DNA of 64,000 nucleotides from Acaryochloris sp. CCMEE 5410 (lineage in GTDB: Bacteria; Cyanobacteriota; Cyanobacteriia; Thermosynechococcales; Thermosynechococcaceae), in NCBI RefSeq assembly GCF_000238775.2, contig NZ_AFEJ02000003.1, forward strand, positions 124,001 to 188,000. Direction: 5' to 3'. Each line of letters begins with the position of its first letter. Position 1 is the first letter of the stretch. Shown one piece after another: positions 16,141 through 57,510 of the stretch. A program made the position numbers and the translations under genes. The notes below the pieces were generated by a model. The model saw only the letters and a program-made list of their open reading frames with translations, ran no database searches and was not told the DNA's origin.

Positions 16141-16193
16141 GACTGAAACCCTTTCCTATCAATGGCTATAGGCATTAAGAACTGTAAATTGCA

Positions 16194-16237: not shown

Positions 16238-16287
16238 AAAACTTGCCTTACGCTCTAGTGAATTCACTTTCATAGGAGCGTAATTGC

Positions 16288-19415: not shown

Positions 19416-19426
19416 TTATTGACGAC

Positions 19427-33067: not shown

Positions 33068-34501
33068 CTACTTAACTACTACAAAAAATCTACCGCTCCT
33101 TCCCCAACAACTTCGTGTCCGTCGGGAAATGACGAAAGCCTCAACCCAATGTGCCCCATGATAGCTTGTAGACTCCCAACGCACTCCAGGTTTGTTGGAT
33201 TTTTCAAAACCACCTCTCAATTGGTTTGCTTGTACTGCCTCATTATCAGTATTGACGACTTGCCATTTCACAACAAAGTCTGAGGATGCATGCAAAATAC
33301 CATTGGAATTTCTTGCCTCAAATCGGATCCATCGATCCTTCTCAACAACTTCTCCAGACTGTAAAATTCTAACTCTTTGATTACCGTATTGATCTAAGTA
33401 TTCAGTTGCCGAAATAGCTACTGTAAGGCGTTGCTGAAAAGGCCAGGAAAGCTTTTCCACATGCGGCAAACTTGGTGATATAAGTTTTTCTAGAAAATTA
33501 GCTCCTCTTACTAAAACCGCATGCACAATATCTGTACAACCTGTATCTCTAACTAGCGATGTTGATTCTGAAAAAGCTGCTATGTCATTAACTTCCCTTT
33601 TAGCAAACTCATTACCGAATATTTTCCTCCACTTTCGTATACTTTCGGCTCTATCATCTTCTTCATAGGCATCATCAATCCACTCTCGATACCTATGAAT
33701 ACATTCCCTAAAATTCTCATACTTCTCTTGGTTCCAGTGACGATTAAATGTTTCTGATGGCAGGACAGGATTCGTAACTATAGGCATGCTAGATCTAACC
33801 TGAAGATAGTCATCAAGGCGTCCTACTAGAACCTTCAACGAAGTAGGTAGGTCAGGAAAAATTTGCTTTTGGAAACTCTGATCAAATTGATTAACGCAAT
33901 TTCCCACAAGAGTAGTTAGAAGAATCGACTTTACCGAGAAAGTTGTCTTGATGTCTCTTAGATACTTGAGCAGGCGGATGGAGTGCTGAAGCATATTATT
34001 CCCAGTCCAAGTATTCCTCTCCAATAGCCAACTTGAATATGCTTCAGGTGCTGTTGGCTCAAACTTATCAACTGTTCGATTGCATACCTGAAATGTTGCT
34101 ACGGCATTATTATCAGTAATACACGGTACGATATCGAGATGAAAATCACCTGCATAATCTAGTGCAACACATCGCGTACCACGAGAAATTTTATCCTTGT
34201 ATCGATCAGAGCTCTTGAATATGTAGTAGAGATTATTCACATAGTCCCTGGGCGACCATGCTTCAAAACGATCAATAAACATGACGAGATCTGCGTCGAA
34301 CTCTCTTCCAGAAAGAGGTTTAATAATAGTTCCATGCGCCCATGAACCTTGTGCAGAAAACCTGATAATCTTCGCGTCGTAACCACTATTTATCAAAAAG
34401 TCTTGTATTGCGTTGACATGGCCTTCGAGTCTATCAATACGAGTCTGATTCAGATTGACAATATCGTCTATAAACGAATCAAAATGCTCTGATAACTTCA
34501 T
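33068..34501 (-). CDS. CBASS CD-NTase (cyclic oligonucleotide synthase) with AGS-C sensor domain
   Basis: A 477-residue SMODS/OAS-type nucleotidyltransferase. Catalytic signature: GSWAHGT near residue 52, the DxD pair in REFDADLVMF near 70 and the third acidic residue in FHLDIVPC near 122. Helical core to about residue 330. The last ~95 residues (RWIRFEARNSNGILHASSDF... GAHWVEAFVISRR) fit the 'adenylyl/guanylyl and SMODS C-terminal sensor' domain. On infection such enzymes make a cyclic di- or trinucleotide that switches on the partner effector. Its ATG overlaps the stop of the patatin gene (ATGA, 34498-34501), so the two are co-translated. No Cap2/Cap3 or HORMA/TRIP13 genes are present, so this is the two-gene (type I) layout. 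The nucleotide made cannot be told from sequence. Confidence 0.92.
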   Translation of the reverse strand: MKLSEHFDSFIDDIVNLNQTRIDRLEGHVNAIQDFLINSGYDAKIIRFSAQGSWAHGTIIKPLSGREFDADLVMFIDRFEAWSPRDYVNNLYYIFKSSDRYKDKISRGTRCVALDYAGDFHLDIVPCITDNNAVATFQVCNRTVDKFEPTAPEAYSSWLLERNTWTGNNMLQHSIRLLKYLRDIKTTFSVKSILLTTLVGNCVNQFDQSFQKQIFPDLPTSLKVLVGRLDDYLQVRSSMPIVTNPVLPSETFNRHWNQEKYENFRECIHRYREWIDDAYEEDDRAESIRKWRKIFGNEFAKREVNDIAAFSESTSLVRDTGCTDIVHAVLVRGANFLEKLISPSLPHVEKLSWPFQQRLTVAISATEYLDQYGNQRVRILQSGEVVEKDRWIRFEARNSNGILHASSDFVVKWQVVNTDNEAVQANQLRGGFEKSNKPGVRWESTSYHGAHWVEAFVISRRTRSCWGRSGRFFVVVK

Positions 34502-35487
34502 GGTACGTTTTCAGTGATTTTGTAGAGAGGCACAAATGGCTCAGCAGCTATGTCGAAGAAGATTGGCTGTAAGCTAGGAAACCGTTCCCGTGAATAAGAG
34601 AAGCCTAGGCCTTTCAGATTCTTTATCTCTGAAACGCCATCCATAGTGTATTCTCCCGCTGGAACGGTATGATTTACTCTAAATATAGCGTCTCGTTCAT
34701 GCTCGTGTCCGGTGAGAAGCTTGGCAATACCCATAGCTCCATGAGATTGACCATTCATGAATAACGAGACTAACTTGGTTGCTAACGGTCCCACTCCAGC
34801 TGCTTTTGGTAATGTATATGCTTCATCTAAACAACCCAAGCTCAGCACATAGATTTCCTCAGCAGGCCACTTCATAGTTCCAATTGCTTCTGTTACGGCA
34901 ACTGCAATCGGATTATTTGCCCAAATACCACCATCAATAAGCCCAACGCTTTCCTCAGTCATATGCTGCTGAAAGTAAGTTGGTGCGGCAGATGTGGCCA
35001 GTGCTGCATCAACTATAAGAGACTTGTAATCGGTTCTGAAGCGTGAATGGTGAGGAGTCTTATAGATGTAGACAGACTGTGCTGTAGGGTTCCAAGCTGG
35101 AATTACAATCCGGTGTTTTGCATCTCCAATTCTTTTATTACCAAAAAGGCCATTGAGAGTAGAACGCAACTTGTCAGAGCTGTATTTACGTCGATAAAGC
35201 CAGCGTATTGACCTTAGTTTATTAGTCACAAAACTCTGGAGCGCACTTCCTTGTTGACCAAATATTTCGGGTCCATTTTCCTCATACATTTGTAGTATTT
35301 CAGCTGCACGTAGCCCCATACCTAGACCAAGCGCTATTATTCCTCCTGTAGAAGTGCCGCTGATTAGATCAAAATATTCGCCTATCGGCTTATCTAGCTG
35401 CTCTTCGATACCAGCTAGGAATGCAGCTGGAAACGTACCTAAGATTCCACCTCCATCAATCGATAGAATCCTTCGTTTTTTAGTCAA
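34498..35487 (-). CDS. capV: CBASS effector, patatin-like phospholipase CapV
   Basis: A 329-residue patatin phospholipase. It has the glycine-rich oxyanion loop DGGGILG (residues 11-17), the nucleophile elbow GTSTG with Ser46, and the catalytic Asp in LIDGGIWANNP near residue 185. CapV enzymes are switched on by the cyclic nucleotide from the adjacent synthase (3'3'-cGAMP in the studied cases) and degrade membrane phospholipids, killing the infected cell before phage release. It is the first gene of a two-gene minus-strand unit. All catalytic residues are present. Start ATG at 35487 (MTKKRRILSIDGGG) leaves the short N-terminus typical of the family. Confidence 0.94.
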   Translation of the reverse strand: MTKKRRILSIDGGGILGTFPAAFLAGIEEQLDKPIGEYFDLISGTSTGGIIALGLGMGLRAAEILQMYEENGPEIFGQQGSALQSFVTNKLRSIRWLYRRKYSSDKLRSTLNGLFGNKRIGDAKHRIVIPAWNPTAQSVYIYKTPHHSRFRTDYKSLIVDAALATSAAPTYFQQHMTEESVGLIDGGIWANNPIAVAVTEAIGTMKWPAEEIYVLSLGCLDEAYTLPKAAGVGPLATKLVSLFMNGQSHGAMGIAKLLTGHEHERDAIFRVNHTVPAGEYTMDGVSEIKNLKGLGFSYSRERFPSLQPIFFDIAAEPFVPLYKITENVP

Positions 35488-35789: not shown

Positions 35790-36839
35790 GTGGCAAAAAA
35801 TCTTACGTTTGCTGATGATGGATATGATGAGTTTCTTCGAGGCTTAAAGGAGCGTATTCGTACTGCCCAGGTGAAAGCAGCGCTGGCAGTCAATCGCGAA
35901 CTGGTCTTGCTTTACTGGGAGATAGGTCGGGAGATTATAAATCGGCAAGTAGCCCAGGGTTGGGGCTCAAAAGTGGTGGATCAGCTGGCCAAAGACCTAA
36001 AGAAAGAGTTCTCAGATATGAGAGGATTTTCCCGGTCTAACCTCATGTATATGCGAGCTTTTGCTGAGACCTGGCCAGACGAGACAATTGTCCAAGAGGT
36101 ACTTGGACAAATTCCTTGGTACCACAACATCGCTTTGCTAGAGAAGCTGAAGTCCAAGGAGCAGCGGCTTTGGTATGCCCAAGAAACCGTAAAGAACGGC
36201 TGGAGCCGTAATGTGTTAGTTCTTCAGATCGAGAGTGGCCTCTATAAGCGCCAAGGGAGTGCGATCACAAATTTCGAACAAGCCTTGCCAAAAACTCAGT
36301 CAGACTTAGCTCAGCAGCTCTTAAAGGATCCCTATAATTTTGAATTTCTGACAATCAGTCAAGATGCTCATGAGCTTGAGCTAGAAAGGGGTCTGGTTAC
36401 CCACATTAGAGATTTTTTGATTGAGCTCGGATTGGGCTTTGCCTTTGTTGGCAGTCAGTATCCCCTGGTAGTTGATGGTACAGAGTTCCGCTTGGATCTC
36501 CTTTTTTACCATCTCCAGCTTAGATGTTTTGTAGTGATCGACCTCAAAATGGGGGCTTTCAAGCCTGAGGATAGCGGCAAAATGAATTTTTACGTTGCGG
36601 TGGTAGATGACACCCTCAGACATGAAATGGATAACCCGACTATCGGACTCATCTTATGTAAATCTAAGAGTCGCACTTTGGCTGAATATGCTCTACGAAA
36701 TATTCAAACTCCTATAGGGGTTTCAACTCACAAGCTACCAGATGATTTGTCGGAAAAACTTCCAACTATTGAGCAACTTGAAGCCGAACTGGAAGCGGTA
36801 CGTTTATCGGATGAAGGGGAATCTCAGGATCAAGCCTAG
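35790..36839 (+). CDS. YhcG-like DUF1016 PD-(D/E)XK nuclease
   Basis: A 349-residue protein with the two-part architecture of the family. The N-terminal DUF1016_N helical domain covers residues about 20-160 (NRELVLLYWEIGREI, GWGSKVVDQLAKDL, GFSRSNLMYMRAFAETWP, IPWYHNIALLEKL). The C-terminal YhcG nuclease domain spans about 180-330, with the PD-(D/E)XK core FRLDLLFYHLQLRCFVVIDLK (D then D-x-K) and GQMNFY-like KMNFYVAVVDD. Relatives are predicted Holliday-junction-like or restriction nucleases often seen in defence islands. GTG start at 35790 with AGGAG 5 bases upstream. It diverges from CBASS and is the last gene before Tn3 copy B. Confidence 0.9.
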   Translation: MAKNLTFADDGYDEFLRGLKERIRTAQVKAALAVNRELVLLYWEIGREIINRQVAQGWGSKVVDQLAKDLKKEFSDMRGFSRSNLMYMRAFAETWPDETIVQEVLGQIPWYHNIALLEKLKSKEQRLWYAQETVKNGWSRNVLVLQIESGLYKRQGSAITNFEQALPKTQSDLAQQLLKDPYNFEFLTISQDAHELELERGLVTHIRDFLIELGLGFAFVGSQYPLVVDGTEFRLDLLFYHLQLRCFVVIDLKMGAFKPEDSGKMNFYVAVVDDTLRHEMDNPTIGLILCKSKSRTLAEYALRNIQTPIGVSTHKLPDDLSEKLPTIEQLEAELEAVRLSDEGESQDQA

Positions 36840-37036: not shown

Positions 37037-37074
37037 GGGGTAATTGAAGGGTCGCTGACACCAGACGCAACCAA
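37037..37074 (+). repeat. Left 38-bp inverted repeat of copy B
   Basis: Identical to the left end of copy A (16103-16140). Confidence 0.93.
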
Positions 37075-37127
37075 GACTGAAACCCTTTCCTATCAATGGC
37101 TATAGGCATTAAGAACTGTAAATTGCA

Positions 37128-37171
37128 TTAACTGACCTCACCCTCAATTTATAATCTGTACTTATAGTACA
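37128..37171 (+). promoter_or_regulatory. tnpA promoter and palindromic operator of copy B
   Basis: Same block as 16194-16237 in copy A: TTAACT, 16 bp, TATAAT, then TGTACT-TAT-AGTACA. Confidence 0.55.
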
Positions 37172-37221
37172 AAAACTTGCCTTACGCTCTAGTGAATTCA
37201 CTTTCATAGGAGCGTAATTGC

Positions 37222-40164
37222 ATGAAACGGAAATGGCATCCAGAAGAGCTACTTGAGCATTGGTCTATCCAGCCTGATGAGGAACATCTGTTGTCCAGAC
37301 GTCAAGGCGCAAACCGCTTAGGATTTGTCCTGCTGCTTAAATTTTTCCAATACGAAGGACGCTTCCCTGAACAGAAGTATGAGATTCCTCGTATGGCCAT
37401 AACCTTTGTAGCAAGCCAGCTAAACTTATTGCCAGAGCAGTTTCAAGACTATAACTGGCGAGGTAGGAGCATTCAGAATCACCGGGCCCAGATTCGCCAA
37501 TTTACTGGATTTCGACAAGCCACGGTAACAGACCAAAATCAGTTACGCACTTGGTTAGTCGATTCAGCTCTGAGTCAAGAGCAGGACTATCATCATCTGA
37601 AATTGAAAGTCTATGCTCAACTGCGTTCTCTTCGGATTGAACCACCAACCCCCGCTAGAATTAAGCGCTTAATTCGGTCTGCTCAACACCTATTTGAGAG
37701 GCAGCTTTTTCCTTAACCCTTAAGCAGTTGTCCAAGCAAACTCAGACTGAGCTCGATAAATTGATCCAAGAACCCAAGGTGACGCCGGGTAAAGAGATAC
37801 CAGATCCTCCCCTGAGTGCATTGAAAAAGACCCAGGACCAGTCGGTCTCAATAGCCTGCTTTCAGAAGTCATCAAACTCCAACGACTCCGCCAAGTGGCT
37901 TTGCCAGATACCCTGTTTTCTCATCTAAGCCCACGAGTTCTGGAGTGTTATCGGCTCCGAGTGGAGACAGAAACCTTATCAGAGTTGAGGCATCACCCCA
38001 AAACCATCCGACTCACCTTACTCGCGAGTTTCTGCTGGCAGCGGTGCCAAGAGATCATCGACAACATCATGGATTTATTGATTCAGATCGTTCATCGCAT
38101 TGATACACGCAGCAAGAATAAAGTGACGTCAGAGGTGATCGCTAAAGTCAAAAAACCGACTCTCATACCCAGCTGTTTTATCAGGTGGCCACCGCAGCCC
38201 TAGCCACACCAGATGGCTTGGTCAGAGATGTTATCTACCCCGTTGCCAGTGAGCAAACTCTGGAGGCATTTGTTGACTCCTACAATGATGGCGGTCAGAC
38301 TTACCGACAACTTCTACACTCGAGGATCCGTTCTTCCTACGGTCATCATTATCGGCAAATGCTTCCTGCGGTACTGGAAGTGATTGATTTTCGCTGCAAT
38401 AACAAGCAATACCAGCCCATCCTGCAGGCTGTGGATTTACTCAAAGCCTATGTGGACACCCCCGAAAACCTTATGCCTCAGCAGACGACGTTCCCATCGA
38501 AGGGGTCGTCAGTGCAGACTGGCAAGAGACGGTATTGGATCAGGATGAAGACCAGCCAGACAAAGTAGATCGCATCGCCTATGAGATGTGCGTCCTCAGG
38601 GCCTTGCGAGAGAAACTACGGTGTAAGGAAATTTGGGTCGCCGGTGCCAATCGCTATCGCAATCCCGACCTGGATTTACCCCAAGACTTTGACGAGCGAC
38701 GAGAAGAATACTACCAGGATCTGCAACAGCCCCTAGAGGTGGAGACCTTCATCACTCAAATCCAGGCTGATATGGAAAACGCTTTGACCCTACTGAATCA
38801 GGGAATGCCCCACAATTCCAAAGTTGAGATCTTGAGTAAGCGAGGAGGACGAATTAAGGTGTCCCCGCTTGAGGCACAACCGGAACCCATGAACATTCAA
38901 AACTCAAGGAAGAGATCAACCACCGGTGGTCCCTAACGCATTTATTGGACGTCCTCAAAGAAGCGGACTTTCGGATTGATTTCACCCAGCATTTCAAGAG
39001 TGCGGCTAGTCGTGAAATATTGAGCCCCCAGTCCCTGCGAAAGCGCCTACTGTTGTGTATTTACGGACTGGGCACCAATTTAGGAATTAAGCGCATCGCT
39101 CATTCAGAAGCCGATGCAGGATACTTTGAATTGCATTATGTCCGACGCAAGTTTTTAAACAAGACTGCCCTCAGCTGTGCCATTACGGATGTGGCCAATG
39201 CGATTTTCCGGATTCGCCTTTCTCATATTTGGGGGGAAGCCACCACGGCTTGTGCGTCTGATTCTCGGCACTTTGAATCTTGGGACCAGAATTTGATGAC
39301 GGAATGGCATGTTCGCTATGGCGGCCGGGGGGTGATGATCTACTGGCATGTCGAGAAAAATCTGTGTGTATCTACTCGCAACTGAAGAAGTGTTCTTCCT
39401 CGGAGGTAGCCTTTATGGTTAAGGGTGTGCTTCGCCACTGCACGGAGATGTCCGTGAATAAAAGCTATGTGGATACCCATGGCCAAAGCGAGGTGGGGTT
39501 TGCCTTTTGCTATTTATTGAATTTCCAGCTGATGCCTCGCTTTAAGGGCATCAACAAGCAGAAGCTCTACCTGCCGATGTCCGGGCAGAAGAAGAAGTAT
39601 CTCCATCTTAAGGCGATTTTAAAGCGACCCATTCGTTGGGATCTGGTTCGGGAGCAATATGAGCCCATGATCCAGTTCACAACCGCGATGAAGCAAGGCA
39701 CTGCCGAACCTGAAGCCATTCTGAGTCGATTCACTCGCAACAACATCAAGCACCCCACCTACTTGGCTTTGGCTGAATTAGGGCGAGCCATTAAGACCAT
39801 CTTCCTGTGCCAGTATTTGCATGATGAAGCCTTACGGCAAGAGATCAATGAAGGCTTGAATGTCGTTGAGAATTGGAATAGTGCCAATGACTTCATCTTC
39901 TATGGAAAGAATGGTGACTTTGCCAGTAATCAAACGGCGATGCAAGAACTGTCCATGCTTTGCCTGCACCTACTGCAAATCAGCCTGGTTTACATCAATA
40001 CTCTAATGATTCAAAAAGTACTTTCTGAACCCACGTGGATGAATCGTATGCAGGAAGAAGATTTGAGGGCGTTAACGCCGTTGTTTTACCTCCATATCAA
40101 TCCTTATGGACGTTTCCGCCTCAACATGAATGAGCGTCTGGTGATTGAAAACTTGGCTGCGTAG
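37222..40164 (+). pseudogene. tnpA: Tn3-family transposase, six frameshifts (copy B)
   Basis: This is the second copy of the transposase at 16288-19232. It lacks copy A's first lesion (five T at 37342-37346 keep the N-terminal 164 codons open) but shares three (T-run 37706-37710, A-run 37824-37828, A-run 38465-38468) and adds three of its own (A-runs at 38150-38155, 38899-38902 and 39356-39360). Restoring one base at each of the six runs gives the same 982-residue protein as repaired copy A. It cannot make full-length transposase by normal translation. It could be moved only in trans by another TnpA that reads the same ends; the intact enzyme at 2077-5055 has different ends, so it is not an obvious candidate. 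Confidence 0.88.
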
Positions 40165-40309
40165 GGAGTAGCTGTAATGAGGTTGTTGAGTTAGGGCCCA
40201 TCTCAGCAAGGCAACCTTTGCTCGAATATCGAGTAGTACAGCAAAAAAATACTTAAGCAAAACTTATTGTTCAGGGGTAAATTTGCCCTGTTTTGAAGGG
40301 TGATCTAGT

Positions 40310-40347
40310 TTGGTTGCGTCTGGTGTCAGCAACCCTTCAATTACCCC
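40310..40347 (-). repeat. Right 38-bp inverted repeat of copy B
   Basis: Identical to the right end of copy A (19378-19415). The TPR-CHAT reading frame begins directly after it. Confidence 0.93.
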
Positions 40348-43300
40348 GTCTTGCCGAACTCGACCTGGATACCTGCTTCGTCTGTCGTGGCACAGAACAG
40401 AATTTTCCCCTTGACTCAGCCCTCTACCAGCAAGCCCTAGCCCTTTTCGAAACCATCGATCATGCCCTTGGCCCAGCTGATGTCCTTGTTAGCTTGGGCA
40501 GCCGTCTAATAAAGGCAGGCTTCGACGGCACCGACTCCGTTCATCAAGCCCTGAAAATCTATCGTCAACAAGACAATCTGCTCGGCATCTACAATGCACT
40601 GACTGACCTGAGCAGTTGGTATCTCCAGCAAGGGCAAATCAACGAAAGCTTTAATCTGCGCCAGGAAGCTCTAGAAATTGCCCAACGAATGGGCTTTCTC
40701 CTCGCTCAAGCTACCACCTACCTCGGCATCGGCGACTACTACTTCCGCACCTCCGACTATGCTAACGCCCTAGCTGCTTACGAACAAGTCGAAGCTCTCA
40801 CCGATCTCCCCGGTATTCGCACTATGCACGGGCTGGCTCTTGTGAATGCTTACATCCATATGAACCTCCTCGATCGCGCTGAATCCATTTGCCACCAGAC
40901 TATCACCCTACTCCTGCCAATTGGGAACTCTCCATCGCTCTCCTTGGCCTACTTCATCCTGGGCAACGTCTTGAGTGCCCAAGGCCAGTGGGCCGAGGCA
41001 ATCTCCCGATGGCAGACCGGTCTCACTGTTGATGTCGAACTCAAGAACCACTTCGACCAAGCCGAAAAACTCAAATGCATCGCCCAAGCCATGGTCATGC
41101 AGCACCACAAACCGGGAGGCTCCAAAGTCCCCGACGTGGCGTATGAAACCGCTATGCTACATTATTCTGAAGCGATTGTATGTTTAGAATCCATTGGTGA
41201 TCGCCAAGCCACCGCTGCGATAGCAGGCACTTACCAGCTCCAAGGTCAAACCGCCGTTGCCAGTGGTCGTTCCCTCAATGCCCTCCCCTACCTAGAGCAA
41301 GCTCGCGAGACCTACGCTGCCCTGGAACTGGGTATGCAAACCGCTATTACTGATAGTCTGCTGGGTCTCACCTGCCATAATCTGGGTGGGCGAGGCTACC
41401 CCGAACTTTATGCTGAAGCCAGCCAATGTTATAAACGCGCCTTGGCGTATTTCCAATCCACCGAAATGCGTGACATGACCTGGAAAGTCTGTTTCTATCT
41501 GGCTGATATTGATTACCTGAGAGGGTTTCAAGCAGCAACGGAGGCAGAGCAGCGATCGCTCTGGCAATCTGCAGCTCAATGGCTGGAAACCGCTGCCATT
41601 GAAATCGATCTTGTCAGGGGGAAGTTTATGTCAGCCGATGCCATCTCCCAAGAAACCGCACGGTTAGGATTAGTGTCCAACAAGGAAAAAGTCTATACCT
41701 TTGCCATCAAACTGCACCAGACCTACCTGCAAGACAATACCGCAGCCTTCAATTGGCTGGAACGCCTGAAGGGGCGAGTCTTTCTGGATGGGTTGGCGCT
41801 GACCTCTCTGCGATCACCCGCGATTGCGGAGGGAGATCTACTAGCTCAGGAACAGACAATATTGACTTCCCTACAACAGGCGACCACTCAAGCCGATGTG
41901 ATCACCCTTTCGCAACAGCTCAACCTCCTTTGGGATCGGATGGCTACAAACCTTGCAGCAGCTGAGTACGTGACACTGCGACGGGCCGAACCAATTTGTT
42001 TAAAAGCATTACTGTCTTGCCTTTATCCCTAGACAAAGCCTGCAAAATAGTGCCAATGCCTCTATGTTTGCCCTATGCTCCAACGCCGCGTCATCCTGGC
42101 CGAATACTTCACTGCCGAAGACCGTACCCTACTCTTTTTAGTGCGAAAAGATTTTGTAGAACCGATCGTCAAAGAAATTCCCAAGTCCACTGCACAAATC
42201 CGGGCTTTTGTAGCTCAATATTTTCAGGCGGATTCAGCGACGGATCACCAACTTAGAAAATCCACCAGTGATAAAGTTTACAATCTCCCGGAAGCCGAAT
42301 TTCACGCCTTTCTGCATGATTTTGTCAGCCCTTTGCTCGAACCTGATCCAGCGGGGAATCCCATCACCCAGCCGGGTGATATTGTCTGGTTTGTGCCCCA
42401 CGACTTTTTGCACTACTTGCCGCTGCACGCCGTGAAGCTTGGGGAGGACTATCTTAGTGATCTCAATCCCGTCTGCTATACTCCCAGTGCCTCGGTGATG
42501 AAATACTGCCACCAAAAGCGTAAAGGTAAACGGGAGAAAGCATTGATCTTGGGCGATCCGTTGATTTATACGAAAGCTCAAGCCCTCGAGATCCAATCGC
42601 TTTTTCCGCCTGGGGCGGCTGAACTTCACATCGAAGATGCCGCCACAGACTTACTCAAACGCAAGCTGAGCGAGGCCAAAGATGACATCGATATTCTCCA
42701 CATTGCCTGCCACGGTGATTTTGATTCAGAGCAAGCTCTTCAGTCTGGAATTACTTTGCCAGATGGCAGGCTCACTGCCGAGGATATCTTTAACTTAAAA
42801 ATGAATGTCGATCTCGTGATCCTGAGTGCCTGTGAGACGGGGATTAACGAAAACAAACCTGGTGATGAATTGATTGGTCTCACCCGTGCTCTGATCTACG
42901 CCGGAACTCCTTCCGTCGTCGTCAGCCTTTGGGAAGTTGATGCCATTTCTACCAGCATCTTAATGACACAGTTTTACAAAGAACTGCTTGATGGGGCAAC
43001 CAAAGTTGAAGCCCTCCAACAAGCCCAAATAGAATTGCGAACGATGAATATTGAAACTGCCATCGCCCATTACACCAAAATCCAACAACGCTCCCCGGAT
43101 CTGATTGACCAACGTCAACTGCGATGGGATATGGCTAACCTATATTACAACGTTCAAGATTTCAGTCGTGCCAAGGAACTTTACCAGACTCTTCTTCCGA
43201 CTACTAGGCCCAATAGTCCAGAAATCGAAAAAATCAACAATTTGGTCCTGCTGTGTGAGATACAGGAGGGCAGCAAACCAATACAGAAATACCCGTATAC

Positions 43301-43349
43301 CCATCCATATTTCTGGGCACCGTTTGTTTTAATTGGCGATTGGAGATAA
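40348..43349 (+). pseudogene. TPR-CHAT caspase-like protease, 5'-truncated and internally disrupted
   Basis: The 5' end was removed at the right end of Tn3 copy B; the frame can now only start inside the transposon (about 40293). Residues through about base 41500 are TPR-like helical repeats (ALKIYRQQDNLLGIYNAL, ATTYLGIGDYYFRTSDYANALAAYEQ). From 42075 to 43349 lies a CHAT peptidase domain with both catalytic motifs, HIACHGDF (His, near 42700) and LSACETG (Cys, near 42823), ending HPYFWAPFVLIGDWR as in the family. Between 42000 and 42075 the frame is broken by two stop codons, and both flanking parts are in the same frame, so a short stretch of about 70 bases is corrupted. CHAT proteases act as caspase-like executioners in bacterial defence and cell death. 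It leads three same-strand genes. Confidence 0.85.
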
Positions 43350-43353
43350 GGCT

Positions 43354-43986
43354 ATGGCAATTGAAGATAAGACAATAAAATTTGTCAAAGACTGGATGAA
43401 CAATGATTTTAAGATGATCCAGGGCACTATCAATCCACTCGAATCAATCGCTTTACTTGAAAATAGTTCTTATGGTGTGATTGAGAATACTAGTCAGCAA
43501 GCAATCGGGGCGGTAACCAAGGCGGATTTGGAAGGGGCGACCGCCACCAATGAATCAAATCCTGTGCAGCAACTTTTATATAAAGTACCCCTGCTAAAAG
43601 TAGGCTGTGATGTGGAAATGCTAACTATCGAGACCTCGGTACAACTGGCAACACTAATCAAAATTTCAAAAGCAGCAATAGTTACGGATGATGCCAATCA
43701 AATCGTTGGCGTTCTTTCAGCCGAATCCGTCCGCCAGTTTATTCAGAGTAGTACAAGTCAACAGAAGGGCGCAGTGTTAGGAAGTGATGCTCTTCCCTAT
43801 GTTCCTGGAACTGGATTAAAAGGAGCGTTGTCTCCACTGACAGCATACTGTATTTGCTATGAATGCTGGTATGTAAATGAACTATCCGCTGAACAGTGGA
43901 AATCTCTTCAAGCTAATCCACTACCACCCATAACTTGTCAAAATCCCGATCCTAATGTCCCCCAACATTTAATCAAGTTGAGTTGA
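43354..43986 (+). CDS. Tandem CBS-like domain protein
   Basis: A 210-residue protein starting at ATG 43354 (MAIEDKTIKFVKDWM) with GGAGATAAGG 8-12 bases upstream; a TTG at 43333 inside the CHAT gene is less likely. The first ~140 residues contain two CBS-like units (MIQGTINPLESIALLENSSYGVIENTSQ... AIGAVTKADLEG and LLKVGCDVEML... AAIVTDDANQIVGVLSAESV), the adenosine-ligand sensing fold. The C-terminal ~60 residues include paired cysteines (YCICYEC) that might bind metal. It starts 4 bases after the CHAT stop and is followed closely by two membrane-protein genes. A nucleotide-sensing partner of the CHAT protease is a reasonable idea, not shown. Confidence 0.65.
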   Translation: MAIEDKTIKFVKDWMNNDFKMIQGTINPLESIALLENSSYGVIENTSQQAIGAVTKADLEGATATNESNPVQQLLYKVPLLKVGCDVEMLTIETSVQLATLIKISKAAIVTDDANQIVGVLSAESVRQFIQSSTSQQKGAVLGSDALPYVPGTGLKGALSPLTAYCICYECWYVNELSAEQWKSLQANPLPPITCQNPDPNVPQHLIKLS

Positions 43987-43999
43987 CTCAGAGGTACTT

Positions 44000-45070
44000 A
44001 TGTTTAATGAGGTTTTGAAAGAAGCTACAGGAATCCTTGATCGCCGCTTTCTCCTGAATGCATTTTTCCCTTGCCTGATCTTCTGGGGACTACTAGGTAT
44101 TGTGGGTGTCGTGGGCAGTGGCTGGGAACCCTTAAAACTCCTACAAAACTGGAACCAGCAGGATGGCATCCTGCAAACTCTGGAAATCATTGGGTTAATT
44201 ACGCTTGTAGTGTCCTCTGCTAGCGTCCTTTCTAGCCACTCGGCCAGCATTCTGCGCTTCTATGAAGGGTACTGGAAGTTTCCAGTGATTCAGCGATTCA
44301 CCCAACTGGGTAAAACTTGGCATCAGGCACAGTTAGCAAAACTAGATGTGCCAGGTCAAATGAAAGAACTCGCACAACAAATGAAACAAGTAGACGCTCA
44401 ATTGAGTACGACTCAAGCATTGGATCAGAAGCGATCTCTACAAGGTGAAATGAAGAGTCTAATTTCTCAGGAAAGAGAATTAAATCAACGGCAGTTCTCC
44501 CTGAAAGAATTGAATTATCGCAATTACCCTCACCCCCAGCGCTCGGATCAAGTCATGCCAACCCGCCTAGGCAATATCCTGAAAAATTCTGAATTATACC
44601 CTCTCGAACGCTATACCATTGATGCTGTTTTGATTTGGCCACGCTTATACCATTCCCTGCCCGATCGCTACATTCAAGTGATCACCGAAGTTCGCAGTAG
44701 TCTTGACTTTAGCTTAGCAATCGCCACTCTCAGCGGACTATTTAGCATCATGACTGGCCTTTGGCTATTGGCGGTGAAAGCTCCCGGCTGGTTATTCCTG
44801 CTGTGTTTTTGGGGAGGAGCACTGGCAGCCTGGTTGGCCTATCAGAGTGCTCTCGGGAATGCGGTAGCCTATTCTGAACAGGTAAAAGTCTGCTTCGATC
44901 TCTATCGCCATGAATTGGTCAAGCAACTTCGACTTAAACCAGCGACAACACCTGATTTGGAGAATCAACAATGGCAGGAAATCCGAGAGCTATTCTATGA
45001 AGGAAAGATCACTACTACTTGGCAATACACAGACTTAGAATCAAAACCAGAGGGTGCTCAGAATGGTTAA
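44000..45070 (+). CDS. Coiled-coil membrane protein
   Basis: A 356-residue protein. Two hydrophobic segments lie near the N-terminus (FFPCLIFWGLLGIVGVVG, LEIIGLITLVVSSASVL), a charged Gln/Lys/Glu-rich coiled coil covers about residues 110-165 (MKELAQQMKQVDAQL), and two more membrane segments lie near 235-285 (SLAIATLSGLFSIMTGLWLL, WLFLLCFWGGALAAWLAY), followed by a soluble tail. It is 13 bp after the CBS-like gene and overlaps the next gene by 8 bases. I recognise no family. In this gene order it could be the membrane anchor or pore of a CHAT-triggered system. Confidence 0.6.
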   Translation: MFNEVLKEATGILDRRFLLNAFFPCLIFWGLLGIVGVVGSGWEPLKLLQNWNQQDGILQTLEIIGLITLVVSSASVLSSHSASILRFYEGYWKFPVIQRFTQLGKTWHQAQLAKLDVPGQMKELAQQMKQVDAQLSTTQALDQKRSLQGEMKSLISQERELNQRQFSLKELNYRNYPHPQRSDQVMPTRLGNILKNSELYPLERYTIDAVLIWPRLYHSLPDRYIQVITEVRSSLDFSLAIATLSGLFSIMTGLWLLAVKAPGWLFLLCFWGGALAAWLAYQSALGNAVAYSEQVKVCFDLYRHELVKQLRLKPATTPDLENQQWQEIRELFYEGKITTTWQYTDLESKPEGAQNG

Positions 45071-45704
45071 TCGTAAGAACCGCAGAGTATCGTTGTCACT
45101 GGGACACCTCTTTCTCCTGAGCTATCTTATATTAGGCAGTTTAGGCTATAGTTACCTGCAATGGGCAGAGGGGCAAAGCCAAGTCAAAATTTGGGTGCCT
45201 AGCCGGGAGTTACCAGCCTACGCACTAATCCAGCCCACCGATTTGACTGAGAGAACTTTTCCCACTAGAAGGATTGCCGCAGAAACCGTGAAGGAAATTG
45301 ATAAAATTCGCGATCGCTACACAATAACAACCCTTCCTGAAGATAAACCCATACGCAAAAATCAACTGGGGCCAGAACTCACATCGGATCGGAAAAAGTT
45401 GCTCCAAAACAGTGTCTTGATTGGGATCAAAACCACACCCGCAATGATTTTGGGTGGTAATCTGCAAGCGGGAAATTTGGTAGATATTGCGATCGCACAA
45501 GAAGCCACGGAGAAGCAACTGAATCCTAAATTAATTCAATTTGACAATACCTTTGTCTTCGATATTAAATCCAGTTCACTAACGACTACGACAGCCAGTT
45601 CAGCGCCAGAACGGGTCGTAGTTTTAGCTATTCCAGCCCAGCGTCAAGCCGAATTTGCCCGCAGCATCGCTGGTAAAAAGTTGTTGCTGTTTAGGAAACC
45701 CTAA
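45063..45704 (+). CDS. SAF-domain-like membrane-anchored protein
   Basis: A 213-residue protein from ATG 45063. One N-terminal membrane helix (LFLLSYLILGSLGYSYLQW) precedes a SAF-like domain (VPSRELPAYALIQPTDLTERTFP... LPEDKPIRKNQLG), the fold shared by CpaB/RcpC pilus proteins and FlgA. The second half (VLIGIKTTPAMILGGNLQAGNLVDIAI) resembles the region after SAF in CpaB. It should lie outside the cytoplasmic membrane. It overlaps the preceding gene and is the last of the four-gene row. No pilus genes are near, so a role different from pilus assembly is likely here. Confidence 0.6.
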   Translation: MVNRKNRRVSLSLGHLFLLSYLILGSLGYSYLQWAEGQSQVKIWVPSRELPAYALIQPTDLTERTFPTRRIAAETVKEIDKIRDRYTITTLPEDKPIRKNQLGPELTSDRKKLLQNSVLIGIKTTPAMILGGNLQAGNLVDIAIAQEATEKQLNPKLIQFDNTFVFDIKSSSLTTTTASSAPERVVVLAIPAQRQAEFARSIAGKKLLLFRKP

Positions 45705-50949: not shown

Positions 50950-52164
50950 ATGCAGCGTCCAATCTTTCTTGATGGTCATGGAACAACACCCACTGATTCA
51001 CGAGTGGTCAAAGCAATGATGCCTTACCTTCAAGAACAGTTTGGTAACCCTTCTAGTCAATCTCATCTTTATGGATGGGAAGCTGAAGCAGCTGTGAAGC
51101 TATCGCGAGAAACATTGGCAGAAGCTATTGGTGCCCAACCGGAAGAAATTATATTCACTAGCGGTGCGTCCGAGGCGAATAACCTCGCATTAAAAGGAGT
51201 TGCCGAAGCGTATTTCCAACGGGGCAAGCATATCATTACCGTCAAAACGGAGCACCGAGCCGTTCTTGAACCTTGTCGGTATCTTGAGAGCTTAGGTTTT
51301 GAGGTCACCTATCTACCCATTCAGTCAGATGGCCTCTTGCAGTTGAAAGATCTAGAGGACGCCCTTCGACCCGATACTATTCTGGTATCAGTGATGGCTG
51401 CCAATAATGAAATTGGAGTACTACAGCCCTTAGCAGCCATTGGTCGGATTTGCCATGATCACAAAGTACTGTTCCATACTGATGCTGCTCAAGCTATTGG
51501 TAAAATCCCGCTTGATGTCAAAGCCATGAATATTGACTTGATGTCTTTGACAGCACACAAGCTCTATGGCCCTAAAGGTATTGGTGCGCTCTATATTCGG
51601 CGGCGGCCTCCTCTAAATTTAGCACCACAAATACATGGAGGGGGACAGGAACATGGACTACGCTCTGGGACAATGCCCACCCATCAAATTGTCGGTTTTA
51701 GTACTGCTGTGGAACTGGCTCTCACCGAACTAAATCGGGAAGCAGGTCGCCAGAAACGGCTTCGGAATCGCCTCTGGTCGTCCCTAAAACAACTAGACGG
51801 AATTATCCTAAATGGACATGAAACAGAACGGCTCCCCGGTTCACTGAATGTGAGCGTTGAGGGAGTGGATGGGGCTGCACTATTGTTAGGTCTACGGTCT
51901 GATATAGCTGTCTCTTCTGGATCAGCCTGTGCTTCAGGACGTACTGAACCTTCCCATGTATTGTTAGCTTTAGGTCGTGAGCGTGATTTGGCCTCGGCTT
52001 CCTTACGATTTTGTATTGGTCGGTTCAATACAGAGCATGAAATTGACCGCTGTGCGTCAACGGTGTGTCAGACCATTGAAGCCCTTCGCCAATCTCATCA
52101 ATCATTCAAAGACAAGCCTAATTTGGATAAGACTTCAGGAAATACCACCCTATCAATAAACTAA
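50950..52164 (+). CDS. dndA: Cysteine desulfurase DndA/IscS-like
   Basis: A 404-residue class V aminotransferase. It has the N-terminal IFLDGHGTTPTDSRV motif, the PLP lysine in SLTAHKLYGPKG, and the flexible loop with the persulfide-forming Cys (SSGSACASGRTEPSHVL). It takes sulfur from cysteine and passes it to DndC for insertion into the DNA backbone. The shape is IscS-type with a short active-site loop. It is transcribed away from dndBCDE, next to a broken dndC paralogue, and directly after the serine-recombinase element; its promoter should lie in 50885-50949. Frame intact. Confidence 0.9.
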   Translation: MQRPIFLDGHGTTPTDSRVVKAMMPYLQEQFGNPSSQSHLYGWEAEAAVKLSRETLAEAIGAQPEEIIFTSGASEANNLALKGVAEAYFQRGKHIITVKTEHRAVLEPCRYLESLGFEVTYLPIQSDGLLQLKDLEDALRPDTILVSVMAANNEIGVLQPLAAIGRICHDHKVLFHTDAAQAIGKIPLDVKAMNIDLMSLTAHKLYGPKGIGALYIRRRPPLNLAPQIHGGGQEHGLRSGTMPTHQIVGFSTAVELALTELNREAGRQKRLRNRLWSSLKQLDGIILNGHETERLPGSLNVSVEGVDGAALLLGLRSDIAVSSGSACASGRTEPSHVLLALGRERDLASASLRFCIGRFNTEHEIDRCASTVCQTIEALRQSHQSFKDKPNLDKTSGNTTLSIN

Positions 52165-52254
52165 CGTTGCTACTATTCTTGAAAAGGTATTGAAATGAGT
52201 CATCAAAATTTCCATCATGCCAAGATGGACAAATAAAAGTTTGGGCTATCGCTA

Positions 52255-53441
52255 TTGAAAACTCTCAGTTTATTTGAGGAAGAACGATTAACGCTCCTGA
52301 AAAGCATAGAGCTATCGGTTGAGTCACTTCAGCAGTATGGCTATCTCTATCGACATTGGCCATTGCCTTTTCAGGTGGGAAAGACAGTACGGCCACAGTA
52401 ACGCTTGTAGATCATCTGATTGAAACTGGGCGCATCCCAAAACCAGAAACCCTCACTGTTTTATATGCTGACACTCGCCAAGAATTTCCTCCACTTCACA
52501 ACGCTGCAATGGACATCATGGCAGAACTCCAAACCCATGGCATGGATTGTCGAGTGGTTCTGCCCAAGTTAGATCATCGGTATTTTGTATACATGCTCGG
52601 TCGAGGAGTCCCTCCACCCTCTAACACATTTCGCTGGTGCACGCCCAAGCTTAAAGTCATGAGTATGGAACGGGAATTGGAGAAACTCCGAGCAGAGGCG
52701 GGAGAGAAGTTTTTGATGTTGACCGGGGTGCGTATTGGTGAAAGCGCTGCACGGGATCAACGGATTGCGATGAGTTGTACGAAGGATGGCGGTGAATGTG
52801 GTCAAGGCTGGTTTCAGCAAAGCTTTTCCAAAACCATCGCTGATACTCTTGCCCCCATTGTTCACTGGAGAGTTTGTCATGTCTGGGACTGGCTGATGTT
52901 TGAAGCACCAATGAGTGGATTCTCAACCGATGCGATCTTAAAAGTCTATGGGCAAGACACTGCTGAGGGAGAAGAGCCGATCAATGCCCGTACGGGTTGT
53001 ATCGGTTGACCATTAGTGCAAAAAGATGCAGCCCTGGATCGTGTCGTAGCTCAATCAGATTGGGAATATTTAGCTCCTTTACAGCAGCTAAGATCCTTAT
53101 ACTGGGAGATGAAAAAGCCTCAGTATCGATTGCGAAAACCTGGAGAAATCAGAAAATCAGCAACAAAGTATATTGGTAGAAATCGTCTAGGGCCAATATA
53201 TCTGGATGCCCGATGCTGGATGCTTGAACAGGTTCTAGTGATCCAAAAACAAGTGAATCAGGATGCCCAGCGTCTGGGCAGACCCCCTATTAGCCTGATC
53301 AATTCAGAAGAGTTGGCTCGCATCCATGAGCTGATTGAATTAAAGACATACCCTGATAAATGGGATGGCACCGAACCACATGGGGATGAACGGTTCAATG
53401 AGGTTCTGCCGGATGGGAGTATTCAGCCACTATTGTTTTAA
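52255..53441 (+). pseudogene. DndC/PAPS-reductase-like sulfurtransferase, frameshifted and with an in-frame TGA
   Basis: Coding similarity begins at TTG 52255 (KTLSLFEEERLTLLKSIEL... YGYLYRHWP) and then shifts by one base near 52358 into the frame with the PP-loop motif IAFSGGKDSTATV. The body carries FRWCTPKLKVM and LTGVRIGESAARD, as in DndC. At 53007-53009 a TGA interrupts GCIG-TGA-PLVQKD, and the same frame continues to 53441. The intact DndC at 55803-57452 has GCWVCTLVSKD at this place, so the TGA stands exactly at the second Cys of the predicted Fe-S CxxC pair. With one base restored the protein would be 395 residues. Two independent lesions make a dead paralogue most likely. It ends 12 bases inside dndE on the opposite strand. 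Confidence 0.8.
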
Positions 53442-53819
53442 GGCCATTGCGATACAACCATCAATGGCTTTGACCTTAGGGTCGCTCGCCAGATAGCCAA
53501 TACCCCGATGCAAATGCAAGCGAAACTGAGCTGCTAATGTTTCTGGGTCCGTGGGGAATCCATCGTTGTGACAACGCTGTTTGAGAGCAAGAATGAGAAA
53601 ATCTGCAAGCTCGCCCCCAAATACTGGCCAGGTCATCTCGACATTGCTGTCTGCGGGGATGGGAACGGGGGAGGGTGGTGTTGGTTCTGCTAGGGATCGG
53701 CACAATGCCCAACGACATAGAATATTCCATTGTTCAATCTTTGTTACCCGTTTTAACTTGATTAGCTGGTCTTTGCCAGCTTGAGAGATTCTTATCCGTT
53801 CAACAGGAGATGGCAACAT
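53430..53819 (-). CDS. dndE: DNA sulfur-modification protein DndE
   Basis: A 129-residue DndE, the usual small size. The N-terminus (VERIRISQAGKDQLIKLKRVTKIEQWNILCRWALCRSL) and the later LHRGIGYLASDPKVKAIDGCIAMAL are characteristic. DndE binds nicked double-stranded DNA as a tetramer and is needed for sulfur incorporation with DndC and DndD. It follows dndD by 4 bases in the dndB-C-D-E order on the minus strand. Its last 12 bases overlap the end of the converging broken dndC paralogue. Confidence 0.93.
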   Translation of the reverse strand: MLPSPVERIRISQAGKDQLIKLKRVTKIEQWNILCRWALCRSLAEPTPPSPVPIPADSNVEMTWPVFGGELADFLILALKQRCHNDGFPTDPETLAAQFRLHLHRGIGYLASDPKVKAIDGCIAMALKQ

Positions 53820-53823
53820 AGAT

Positions 53824-55797
53824 TTATTTCCAAAAGTAACCTGTTTGGACTTGAGTTTGCTTCATTTTTGCGTCGTAATGGAGCAAATATTCACGGCTGA
53901 TCGCCTTGTTTTTCCTCAGTTCCTTGATTTCGGGTTTGCCAATTTCAGTGTCTGTAGAGAGTAGTAAAACTTGATGACTGGCTTGCGGGAAATATCGTTT
54001 CACGATGTTTTTGCGATGGGAGGAATCGAGTCGGCCTAGAGGGGTGTCGATGGCTATAGGCAGTTGTCGCCCCGATGCCTGAGCCAATCCCCATAAAAGC
54101 GCAATGGCTAAAAGCTGTTTTTCCCCAGCAGAGAGCCGATGTTTAGGCACGGACTGTCCCGTTTGGTCAAAAAGAGACAAAGTGAATGCCTCAGTATCGA
54201 TTTCGACTCGATGCACTAGATTCGACTTGTGCAATAGATGTAAAAAGCATTGAGTAACAAGGGTTTCGAGCTGGTTCAGCTTTTGTAGCTTCAACCGTTG
54301 CTTAAAGATCTGCAGCTTTTCCTGCACCGTTGAAATGGACTTAAGAATATGCTCATCATCGAGCTGCTCAAGAGTCGTTTGGCTGTAGGACAGTAACTCT
54401 TTCTTGATTTGAGCGATTTTCTGAGTAATTTTGTCGTATTCACGCTGAGTTTGCTCATGTTTTACTGTGAGCTTTGCTACCTTATTCTGGGCTTCGGTTA
54501 CCTGCTGCGATAGCTTCTCATAGGTTTCGGGAGAGGCTGCAGTAGCCATATAGCGTTCAGCGGTTTCGGCGGTCTCTTCAATGGCCTGTAGAGCATTGAG
54601 ACGTTCCTGGACGAGTTGCTGTTGAGCGGGTAATGAATGATTCAGGATTTGAGTAAGCTGATGGAGATGATCTGCTGTGGCATTAAGCCATGGCTGAGTT
54701 TGGGGATGTGTCCAGTCTTCATCTTCTTGATCAAGGAAGTTACGAATTTTCTGAACTTTGGTCTGATCAATCTGTAGGGTTTCAACAAAGCTCAGCAGAT
54801 GCTGATTGCGCTCTTGCAACAAATCCTTTGCCCCTTGAAATTGCTCGTATCGCACTTCAGTTTGAAGTTGTTCCTGCACATCTTGGAGGAGTGGTTGAAT
54901 CAGCGCTAAGGGTAAAACACCAGCAGCAAATTCCCGTAGCGCTCGCCGCTGCGCCTGTGCCTCGTCTTTTGCCTGTTGAAGTTGACGTTCCAATTGACTC
55001 CTTTCGGCAGCAATCTTGCCACCCTTAGCTAGAAAACGTTCTTGAGCTTCATTCAGATTTTTTTTCTCTTCATCCAGCTCAGAGTAGACGGAAGTGTTGT
55101 GCTTCTTGGCTGACAGGCGTTGGGCTTCTAGTTCCGCCAGCTTTTGTTCGATTGTTTCCAGCGTTTGACTTTCTTGATTACTGGAGATGGCTTTACTCTT
55201 TCGGGATGCCAAGATTCCTAAATCTGCCGATAGGCGGTCAGGGAGTTCTAAGCCTAGGAGCGAACGCATGGCCCCTACAACTACCGAAGGTAACTCATCC
55301 TGTTCGGCTAGTTCTTTTACCTGCTCTCCGTCAAATAGAAATAAATTGGCAATACCTAAGGGCAACAAGTCCTCAATGCGTTGGTCCCAAGTTTTCGTTA
55401 ATGCTGGATCTAGCTCTCCATCTACAAGGATGTCCAGTTTATCTCGACTACTTTTAGTGTCTTTTGTCCAGCTCCGACAGATCTGAAAAGTAGTGGGCTG
55501 AACTGCATTATTCAGAGTCAGCTGAAGTGATAGCTCAACTGCCGTGGGTTCCCCATTGGTTTGCTGATTGATAGTTTGAACCAGAAAATCTTTATAGGCC
55601 AGATTCCCCCGAGTGGAACAAGGAGCCCGATGCCCATAAAGTGCTAGGCGGATAGCATCCATAAGCGTGGTTTTGCCTCCACCGTTCATACCTCCAAACA
55701 AAATAATGGGTTGAGCACTGTCCAGAGGGGCTAAGTGAATGACCTGTCGTCCACGATAAGGACCAAAATTTTGGAGCACCAGTTCTTGAAAAATCAC
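53824..55797 (-). CDS. dndD: DNA sulfur-modification ATPase DndD
   Basis: A 657-residue SMC/Rad50-like ATPase. Walker A GGMNGGGKTTLMDAI near residue 35, long coiled-coil arms (about residues 200-490), then the ABC signature LSAGEKQLLAIALLW and Walker B IAIDTPLGRLD near 585. DndD powers or licenses DNA opening for sulfur exchange in the DndCDE complex. The start lies 5 bases after the dndC stop. All ATPase motifs are present. Confidence 0.95.
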   Translation of the reverse strand: MIFQELVLQNFGPYRGRQVIHLAPLDSAQPIILFGGMNGGGKTTLMDAIRLALYGHRAPCSTRGNLAYKDFLVQTINQQTNGEPTAVELSLQLTLNNAVQPTTFQICRSWTKDTKSSRDKLDILVDGELDPALTKTWDQRIEDLLPLGIANLFLFDGEQVKELAEQDELPSVVVGAMRSLLGLELPDRLSADLGILASRKSKAISSNQESQTLETIEQKLAELEAQRLSAKKHNTSVYSELDEEKKNLNEAQERFLAKGGKIAAERSQLERQLQQAKDEAQAQRRALREFAAGVLPLALIQPLLQDVQEQLQTEVRYEQFQGAKDLLQERNQHLLSFVETLQIDQTKVQKIRNFLDQEDEDWTHPQTQPWLNATADHLHQLTQILNHSLPAQQQLVQERLNALQAIEETAETAERYMATAASPETYEKLSQQVTEAQNKVAKLTVKHEQTQREYDKITQKIAQIKKELLSYSQTTLEQLDDEHILKSISTVQEKLQIFKQRLKLQKLNQLETLVTQCFLHLLHKSNLVHRVEIDTEAFTLSLFDQTGQSVPKHRLSAGEKQLLAIALLWGLAQASGRQLPIAIDTPLGRLDSSHRKNIVKRYFPQASHQVLLLSTDTEIGKPEIKELRKNKAISREYLLHYDAKMKQTQVQTGYFWK

Positions 55798-55802
55798 AGG
55801 AG

Positions 55803-57452: not shown

Positions 57453-57472
57453 AAATATCCCTAGAGTGCGAG

Positions 57473-57490
57473 TACGTTTTTAATTACGTA
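57473..57490. promoter_or_regulatory. TACG-N10-CGTA palindrome, likely DndB operator for dndCDE
   Basis: TACG at 57473-57476 and CGTA at 57487-57490 are separated by 10 bases, 21 bases upstream of the dndC start. As I recall, DndB/DptB of Salmonella represses dnd genes by binding a TACG-N10-CGTA element; I cannot check this here. The element overlaps TACGTACAGTC (57485-57495), which recurs as TACGTACTGTC at 58739-58749 upstream of dndB. Confidence 0.6.
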
Positions 57491-57510
57491 CAGTCAGTAA
57501 TACATCAAGA

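What the first reader, a model, noticed from the sequence alone, without database searches (positions are those of the whole stretch)
40348..45704. CHAT protease, CBS-like, coiled-coil membrane and SAF-like genes in one row
A TPR-CHAT executioner is followed at +4, +13 and -8 bases by a tandem CBS-like protein (ligand sensor?), a four-helix membrane protein with a coiled coil and a SAF-type membrane-anchored protein. I know no described system with this set. A ligand-sensing, protease-triggered membrane effector would fit. In this genome the first gene is damaged, so intact relatives are needed.
Basis: inference. Interest (0 to 1): 0.62.

Follow-up and report, generated by a model that had tools for sequence, protein, structure and literature searches.

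The report
CHAT protease–CBS–membrane–SAF gene system
A row of genes for a caspase-like protease, a probable ligand-sensing adaptor, a membrane protein and an outside-facing anchor is a real, conserved and apparently undescribed bacterial system, found from cyanobacteria to actinobacteria and probably working as a membrane-bound, protease-controlled stress or anti-phage switch.

Summary
The gene row is real, at the stated coordinates and spacings. It belongs to a conserved system: [TPR]–CHAT–CBS/Zn-ribbon–four-helix membrane protein–[SAF], in at least 27 loci of Cyanobacteria, Actinomycetota and Chloroflexota. A blind test with the CBS/Zn-ribbon gene alone found 9 new loci; all 9 had CHAT and the membrane gene beside it. 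In 11 actinobacterial loci the SAF domain is fused to the membrane protein. A sister class keeps the membrane gene and Zn ribbon but replaces the CBS pair with a small helical domain, beside CHAT or caspase.

Correction: the 'damage' inside the CHAT gene is a natural gene boundary. TPR and CHAT are separate genes in Calothrix, Nonomuraea and Actinomadura, and this CHAT is intact. The real damage is a Tn3-type transposon that removed about 220 N-terminal codons of the TPR gene.

The membrane protein has no Pfam, NCBIfam, PADLOC or PDB relative that I could find. Most likely mechanism (inferred): a membrane-tethered CHAT protease, controlled through the CBS/Zn-ribbon adaptor, gates the membrane protein for cell arrest or death, perhaps against phage. 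This window is a rich defence island; other loci are not obviously so. Substrate, ligand and role are untested.

The parts
37037..40347 (+). Tn3-family transposon with about 53-bp terminal inverted repeats and a broken transposase; it replaces the 5' part of the TPR gene
   Evidence: 99.76% identical twin at about 16103-19425; inverted-repeat match at both ends; no matching 5-bp target duplication
40348..42032 (+). TPR gene, 5'-truncated (about 220 codons lost); its stop codon is the natural gene end
   Evidence: 57.6% identity to Calothrix TPR residues 223-781 of 784; TPR_12 5.6e-17
42075..43349 (+). Intact stand-alone CHAT protease, 424 aa; His213 codon at 42711-42713, Cys253 codon at 42831-42833
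   Evidence: Pfam CHAT 1.2e-54; starts and ends in register with Calothrix CHAT, 52% identity; H/C pair kept in 54 of 54 alignable relatives
43354..43986 (+). CBS pair + disordered linker + C-terminal Zn-ribbon-like module, 210 aa
   Evidence: AlphaFold2 pLDDT 75.5; Foldseek best hit TA0289 CBS-rubredoxin 5.6e-7; VIA Z 12.9 over 122 aa to a CBS pair; relative L043 Pfam CBS 1.3e-12
44000..45070 (+). Four-helix membrane protein with cytoplasmic coiled coil; signature MPTRLGNIL...E...RY.xDAV..WPRL at residues 186-216 (about 44555-44647)
   Evidence: AlphaFold2 pLDDT 86.2; profile hits 67 loci including the window; no Pfam, NCBIfam, PADLOC or PDB family match
45063..45704 (+). Single-TM protein with extracytoplasmic SAF and RcpC-like (CpaB-like) domains
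   Evidence: NCBIfam CpaB 9e-14, below its cut-off; relatives above Pfam SAF and RcpC cut-offs; fused to the membrane protein in actinobacteria

Best explanation
A membrane-bound, protease-centred switch. SHOWN by comparative genomics: TPR platform, CHAT protease, CBS-pair/Zn-ribbon adaptor, four-helix membrane protein and (often) a SAF domain form one co-inherited unit in three phyla, separate from but related to a class in which the CBS pair is replaced by a small helical domain and CHAT may be replaced by a caspase. INFERRED: the TPR-CHAT pair sits at the membrane (in several actinobacteria the TPR part itself has several predicted TM helices) and binds the membrane protein through the Zn-ribbon adaptor. 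An adenine-nucleotide-type ligand, or a partner, read by the CBS pair licenses or releases CHAT. CHAT then cleaves the adaptor or the membrane protein, opening or clustering the latter, so that the cell is arrested or dies. The SAF domain anchors the complex to the envelope, or senses it. The likely benefit is abortive anti-phage defence.
For: Unit: 9/9 loci found blind with the CBS/Zn-ribbon gene carry CHAT and the membrane gene. 54/63 membrane-gene loci lie within 6 kb of CHAT or caspase, against 21 CHAT matches in this whole 8.1-Mb genome. CHAT and membrane-protein divergence correlate (Mantel r 0.65, 0 of 5000 permutations). The membrane gene tree splits into a CBS class and a small-domain class. 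Fusions: membrane-SAF in 11 loci; caspase-Zn ribbon in Lyngbya L020/L053; TPR-CHAT in Kribbella and Streptomyces. The Zn-ribbon module is shared by both classes (hhalign probability 85%, E 6e-6). CHAT catalytic pair 54/54. TM helices in actinobacterial TPR proteins. Conflict-type company: EAD10, caspase and WD40/AAA neighbours at L020; type I RM, CBASS, YhcG and Dnd/Pbe around the window copy.
Against: No substrate, ligand, toxicity or phage phenotype is known. The flanks of other CBS-class loci (MFS, amidase, AMP-ligase, GGDEF/EAL) are not defence islands, and no copy was found in viral contigs. The adenosyl-binding motif of the CBS pair is kept only in part (window GAVTKADL in the first repeat; many relatives lack it). 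The SAF domain is lost in several lineages. Nothing shows that the membrane protein makes a pore.
Confidence: 0.42

Rival explanations
1. Reverse direction: SAF plus membrane protein are the sensor of envelope damage or phage adsorption, passing the signal through the Zn-ribbon adaptor to CHAT, whose output is cleavage of an unknown cytosolic protein.
For: SAF lies outside the cell and is directly fused to the membrane protein; the membrane-protein/Zn-ribbon pair is the constant part while the protease varies (CHAT or caspase) and a NACHT protein is the neighbour at L067.
Against: SAF is missing from the whole sister class and lost repeatedly within this one, so it cannot be an essential sensor; a CBS pair points to a cytosolic ligand.
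Confidence: 0.28
2. A CBS-regulated ion channel or transporter (like MgtE, CNNM/CorC or CLC in logic) whose turnover is set by a dedicated protease; a homeostasis system, not defence.
For: CBS pairs often gate membrane channels (MgtE, CNNM, CLC chains are among the structural hits); flanks of several loci are metabolic.
Against: CBS is absent from the sister class; the phyletic pattern is sparse (10 of 386 cyanobacteria for the membrane gene, 2 of 386 for the CBS gene) and plasmid-borne copies exist, unlike a housekeeping transporter.
Confidence: 0.15
3. Part of a surface or pilus assembly apparatus, as the CpaB-like SAF/RcpC domain suggests, with CHAT as a separase-like regulator.
For: NCBIfam CpaB 9e-14 and Pfam RcpC above cut-off in a relative.
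Against: No pilus or secretion genes recognised beside the loci examined; CpaB cut-off not reached; most membrane-gene loci have no SAF domain at all.
Confidence: 0.08
4. Chance neighbours or a decayed remnant.
For: Transposon cut the TPR gene here.
Against: Same set in 27 loci of three phyla and 9/9 in a blind search; CHAT, CBS, membrane and SAF ORFs here are all intact.
Confidence: 0.02

Closest known systems
Csx29 / Craspase TPR-CHAT (type III-E CRISPR)
   Same: TPR plus CHAT protease with His/Cys pair; best characterised relative of this CHAT (NCBIfam 5.7e-25, PDB 8d9f 1e-9).
   Different: Score 88 against a cut-off of 300; no Cas7-11 or Csx30 match among the proteins scanned; here partners are CBS/Zn-ribbon, membrane and SAF proteins.
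EACC1-caspase membrane-associated two-gene system (Kaur et al. 2020, PMC7159879)
   Same: A conserved small membrane-side component next to a clan-CD protease in multicellular bacteria.
   Different: EACC1 has a single TM helix and its own domain; here a four-helix protein plus Zn-ribbon adaptor, no EACC1 Pfam match, protease is mostly CHAT.
Bacterial gasdermin with adjacent protease (from memory)
   Same: Logic of protease-released membrane executioner.
   Different: The membrane protein is all-helical with TM segments, not the mixed alpha/beta gasdermin fold.
TA0289-type CBS-rubredoxin proteins
   Same: CBS pair followed by a small metal ribbon.
   Different: TA0289 is not known to me to belong to a protease system; the ribbon here shares an L-x-G motif with the partner of the sister class.
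CpaB/RcpC
   Same: TM helix, SAF and RcpC-like domains.
   Different: Below CpaB cut-off, no pilus genes, often fused to the membrane protein.

Membership tests
CHAT protease (PF12770) | CHAT domain above gathering score | tested here: met
   186 bits against cut-off 24
CHAT protease (PF12770) | catalytic His and Cys | tested here: met
   H213 and C253; kept in 54 of 54 alignable relatives
Csx29 / Craspase | NCBIfam NF041237 at or above curated cut-off | tested here: not met
   88 bits against 300
Csx29 / Craspase | adjacent Cas7-11 (gRAMP) and Csx30 | tested here: not met
   None among the 20 window proteins scanned with PADLOC nor in the ORFs of 40.3-45.7 kb
EACC1-caspase system | EACC1 domain with one TM helix | tested here: not met
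   No Pfam match in partners; four TM helices predicted
EACC1-caspase system | caspase (Peptidase_C14) effector gene | tested here: not met
   Protease here is CHAT; caspase only in some sister-class loci
Bacterial gasdermin system | gasdermin (alpha/beta, TM-free) partner of the protease | tested here: not met
   AlphaFold2 model of the membrane protein is all helix with TM segments
CBS-rubredoxin (TA0289-like) protein | tandem CBS pair fold | tested here: met
   Foldseek 5.6e-7, VIA Z 12.9 over 122 aa; L043 Pfam CBS two stretches
CBS-rubredoxin (TA0289-like) protein | metal-binding ribbon | tested here: inconclusive
   Conserved Cys/His pattern in 23 relatives; metal binding itself not testable, model confidence modest
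CpaB (TIGR03177) | curated cut-off reached | tested here: not met
   51 bits against 71
CpaB (TIGR03177) | Flp pilus locus | tested here: not met
   No pilus gene in the window neighbourhood or the flanks sampled
MotA/ExbB/ZorA-type motor subunit | shared fold of the membrane protein | tested here: inconclusive
   Foldseek lists ExbB, ZorA, PomA and MotA only at E above 1 and TM below 0.27
Anti-phage defence system | protects against phage | not testable with these tools
   Only context: defence island in the window, not at other loci sampled

The most novel reading that the evidence does not exclude
A new family of bacterial membrane-bound protease complexes, inflammasome-like in logic: CHAT or caspase, a swappable sensor (CBS pair or helical domain) carried on a constant L-x-G/Zn-ribbon tail, and a constant four-helix membrane executioner of a family not seen before, in the CBS class also tied to the outside by a SAF domain.
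Probability: 0.35. Interest if true: 0.78.

Novelty: new variant of a known kind. Interest (0 to 1): 0.62.

Why it matters
CHAT and caspase-like proteases are abundant in cyanobacteria and actinobacteria, but few have a known partner or substrate. This system hands each such protease two obvious candidate partners (a Zn-ribbon adaptor and a membrane protein), a swappable sensor domain, and fusions that fix topology, so the question 'what do bacterial caspase relatives do at the membrane?' becomes directly testable in cultured strains (Calothrix PCC 7103, Nonomuraea endophytica, Streptomyces).

Tried and rejected
Programmed frameshift or nonsense in a single TPR-CHAT gene: rejected, because Calothrix, Nonomuraea and Actinomadura have the same two-gene split and window TPR and CHAT each end or start in register.

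A stator-like (MotAB/ZorAB) reading of membrane plus SAF proteins: only weak Foldseek rows, no acidic residue in the SAF TM helix, and a 1:1 fusion to SAF speaks against a 5:2 stator; left as inconclusive.

PDB relatives of the membrane protein: none by profile or Foldseek; VIA best Z 7.9 on 54 residues of helix, not meaningful for helical proteins.

Viral contigs: no relative. Literature: no paper held with CHAT domain + CBS domain + SAF domain, CHAT + CBS domain + CpaB, or CBS domain + anti-phage + caspase; preprints and subscription journals are not covered.

Five-base target duplication of the Tn3-like copies: not found on either copy.
Full report
WHAT IS THERE. The window lies in an 8.1-Mb, 23-contig cyanobacterial genome (its phylum inferred from kin found). 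Pfam gives CHAT at 1e-54, TPR_12 at 6e-17, and only weak CBS (0.0016) and SAF (0.004) in the window proteins; the membrane protein matches nothing above chance.

THE 'DAMAGE'. Calothrix PCC 7103 (L037) has a 784-aa TPR gene that ends 37 bases before a 446-aa CHAT gene; Nonomuraea and Actinomadura have the same split with short overlaps. The window TPR aligns to Calothrix TPR residues 223-781 of 784 (57.6%), and the window CHAT aligns from residue 1 to the end. So the stop at 42030 is the natural end and CHAT is whole, with His213 and Cys253. What is lost is the first ~220 codons of the TPR gene: a Tn3-type element with ~53-bp inverted repeats ends at 40347, exactly where homology to Calothrix TPR begins. 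A 99.8% identical twin lies at about 16.1-19.4 kb, and neither copy has a target duplication, so the flanks have probably been rearranged since insertion. Whether the operon is still expressed here is unknown.

THE CONSERVED UNIT. A survey of 386 genomes of the phylum found the membrane protein in 10, the CBS-like protein in 2 and the SAF-like protein convincingly in the same 2 (this genome and G354, which has the same gene order). Plasmids of Nostoc, Rhodococcus and Streptomyces added relatives, each with CHAT or a caspase beside it or within a few genes. One scan of about 85,000 species genomes with the membrane-protein alignment gave 52 loci in Cyanobacteria, Actinomycetota, Chloroflexota, Acidobacteriota, Planctomycetota and Pseudomonadota. 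After removal of duplicates, 54 of 63 loci have a CHAT or caspase gene within 6 kb and 52 of 63 have a Zn-ribbon partner; three of the nine without a protease are at contig ends. For scale, this whole genome has 21 CHAT matches in 8.1 Mb, so chance would give a few per cent.

TWO CLASSES. In the window's class the partner is a CBS pair followed by a Zn-ribbon-like tail; in the other class it is a small, apparently helical domain followed by a Zn-ribbon tail of the same kind (profile-profile probability 85%, E 6e-6, with a shared L-x-G motif just before the cysteines). The membrane-protein tree separates the two classes almost perfectly (3 label changes for 3 groups, shuffled mean 20; the exact node of the CBS class is weakly supported). 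SAF belongs to the CBS class only: separate gene in the three cyanobacteria and an Anaerolineae genome, fused to the C-terminus of the membrane protein in 11 actinobacterial loci, absent in Kribbella, Nonomuraea, Microbispora and two Streptomyces.

BLIND TEST. Because those loci had been found with the membrane gene, I searched 297 genomes of the order of Nonomuraea with the CBS/Zn-ribbon profile alone. It gave 9 loci not seen before. All 9 have CHAT directly next to the pair and all 9 have the membrane gene; in 6 the membrane protein carries a fused SAF domain. Of 11 genomes with the system, nine hold exactly one strong full-length CBS/Zn-ribbon match, at the system; in two others (G394, G395) the profile match was weak. 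CHAT and membrane-protein distances correlate over 24 loci (r 0.65, 0 of 5000 permutations).

THE PROTEINS. CHAT: nearest solved relatives are the Csx29 proteins; the catalytic pair is present in 54 of 54 relatives that cover it. CBS/Zn-ribbon: model pLDDT 75.5, with a CBS pair (residues ~9-135), a disordered linker (136-159) and a ribbon; best structural hits are the CBS-rubredoxin protein TA0289 (Foldseek 5.6e-7) and other CBS pairs (VIA Z 12.9, rmsd 2.8 over 122 aa); a Thermoflexus relative scores 1.3e-12 for CBS. The first CBS repeat of the window keeps the ligand-type motif G-A-V-T-K-A-D (sequence, from knowledge of CBS proteins); the second does not. Membrane protein: model pLDDT 86.2, all helix, two TM helices, a long cytoplasmic coiled-coil part with the most conserved motif (PTRLGNIL..E...Y), two more TM helices and a cytoplasmic tail (topology inferred); no relative found by profile, Foldseek or VIA. 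SAF protein: positive N-terminus, one TM helix, then SAF and RcpC-like domains, hence probably outside. In Kribbella, Nonomuraea, Actinomadura and some Streptomyces the TPR part itself has several predicted TM helices, which places CHAT at the membrane.

HOW IT PROBABLY WORKS. Shown: co-inheritance, gene order, fusions, intact catalytic pair, CBS and SAF folds. Inferred: the Zn-ribbon adaptor links CHAT to the membrane protein; the swappable N-terminal domain (CBS pair or helical domain) sets what is sensed; CHAT cleaves the adaptor or the membrane protein, most simply in the disordered linker before the ribbon; the membrane protein is the executioner; SAF fixes the complex to, or senses, the envelope. 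The reverse direction (membrane/SAF as sensor, CHAT as output) is not excluded.

DEFENCE? The window is a defence island: type I restriction-modification (23.0-32.2 kb), CBASS cyclase plus patatin (33.1-35.5 kb), YhcG nuclease (35.8 kb), DndA/B/C/D-Pbe genes (50.9-58.6 kb). One sister-class member sits beside EAD10, caspase, AAA and WD40 proteins, the vocabulary of the conflict systems of Kaur et al. 2020 (PMC7159879). But flanks of other CBS-class loci are ordinary genes and viral contigs hold none. Defence is therefore likely but not shown.

NOVELTY. I found no paper in the held library that combines these parts, no PADLOC, Pfam or NCBIfam model for the membrane protein, and the set fails the defining tests of Craspase, EACC1-caspase, gasdermin and CpaB systems. 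Within the known kind 'clan-CD protease with dedicated membrane partner' it is a new variant with an apparently new membrane family.

Noticed in passing
window 16103-19425 and 37037-40347: Two 99.76% identical Tn3-like elements with ~53-bp inverted repeats; the transposase is split over several ORFs in both and no target duplications are seen, so the 20 kb between them may have been rearranged.
   Followed up: partly
window 33068-35487: CBASS-type cyclase (PADLOC Cyclase 3.6e-171) and patatin phospholipase effector (2.8e-101) next to a YhcG nuclease at 35790-36839.
   Followed up: partly
window 50950-58644: DndA/SspA, a short 217-aa DndC-like ORF (52356-53009), PbeC/DndD, full DndC and DndB: phosphorothioation genes with an extra truncated DndC-like gene.
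   Followed up: no
L074 2041-6964 (Cellulomonas sp. Leaf334): FHIPEP (FlhA cytoplasmic domain-like) proteins lie between a caspase and the Zn-ribbon/membrane pair.
   Followed up: partly
L067 482-5285 (Anaerolineae): A relative of the membrane gene sits beside a NACHT-FGE-sulfatase protein in place of a CHAT gene.
   Followed up: partly
L016 6080-6640 (Streptomyces sp. NBC_00158 plasmid): CBS/Zn-ribbon gene present but frameshifted and not annotated, between CHAT and the membrane-SAF fusion.
   Followed up: partly
window 6890-8254: ORF with about five near-identical 60-aa FG-GAP-like repeats that also give a long antisense ORF.
   Followed up: no
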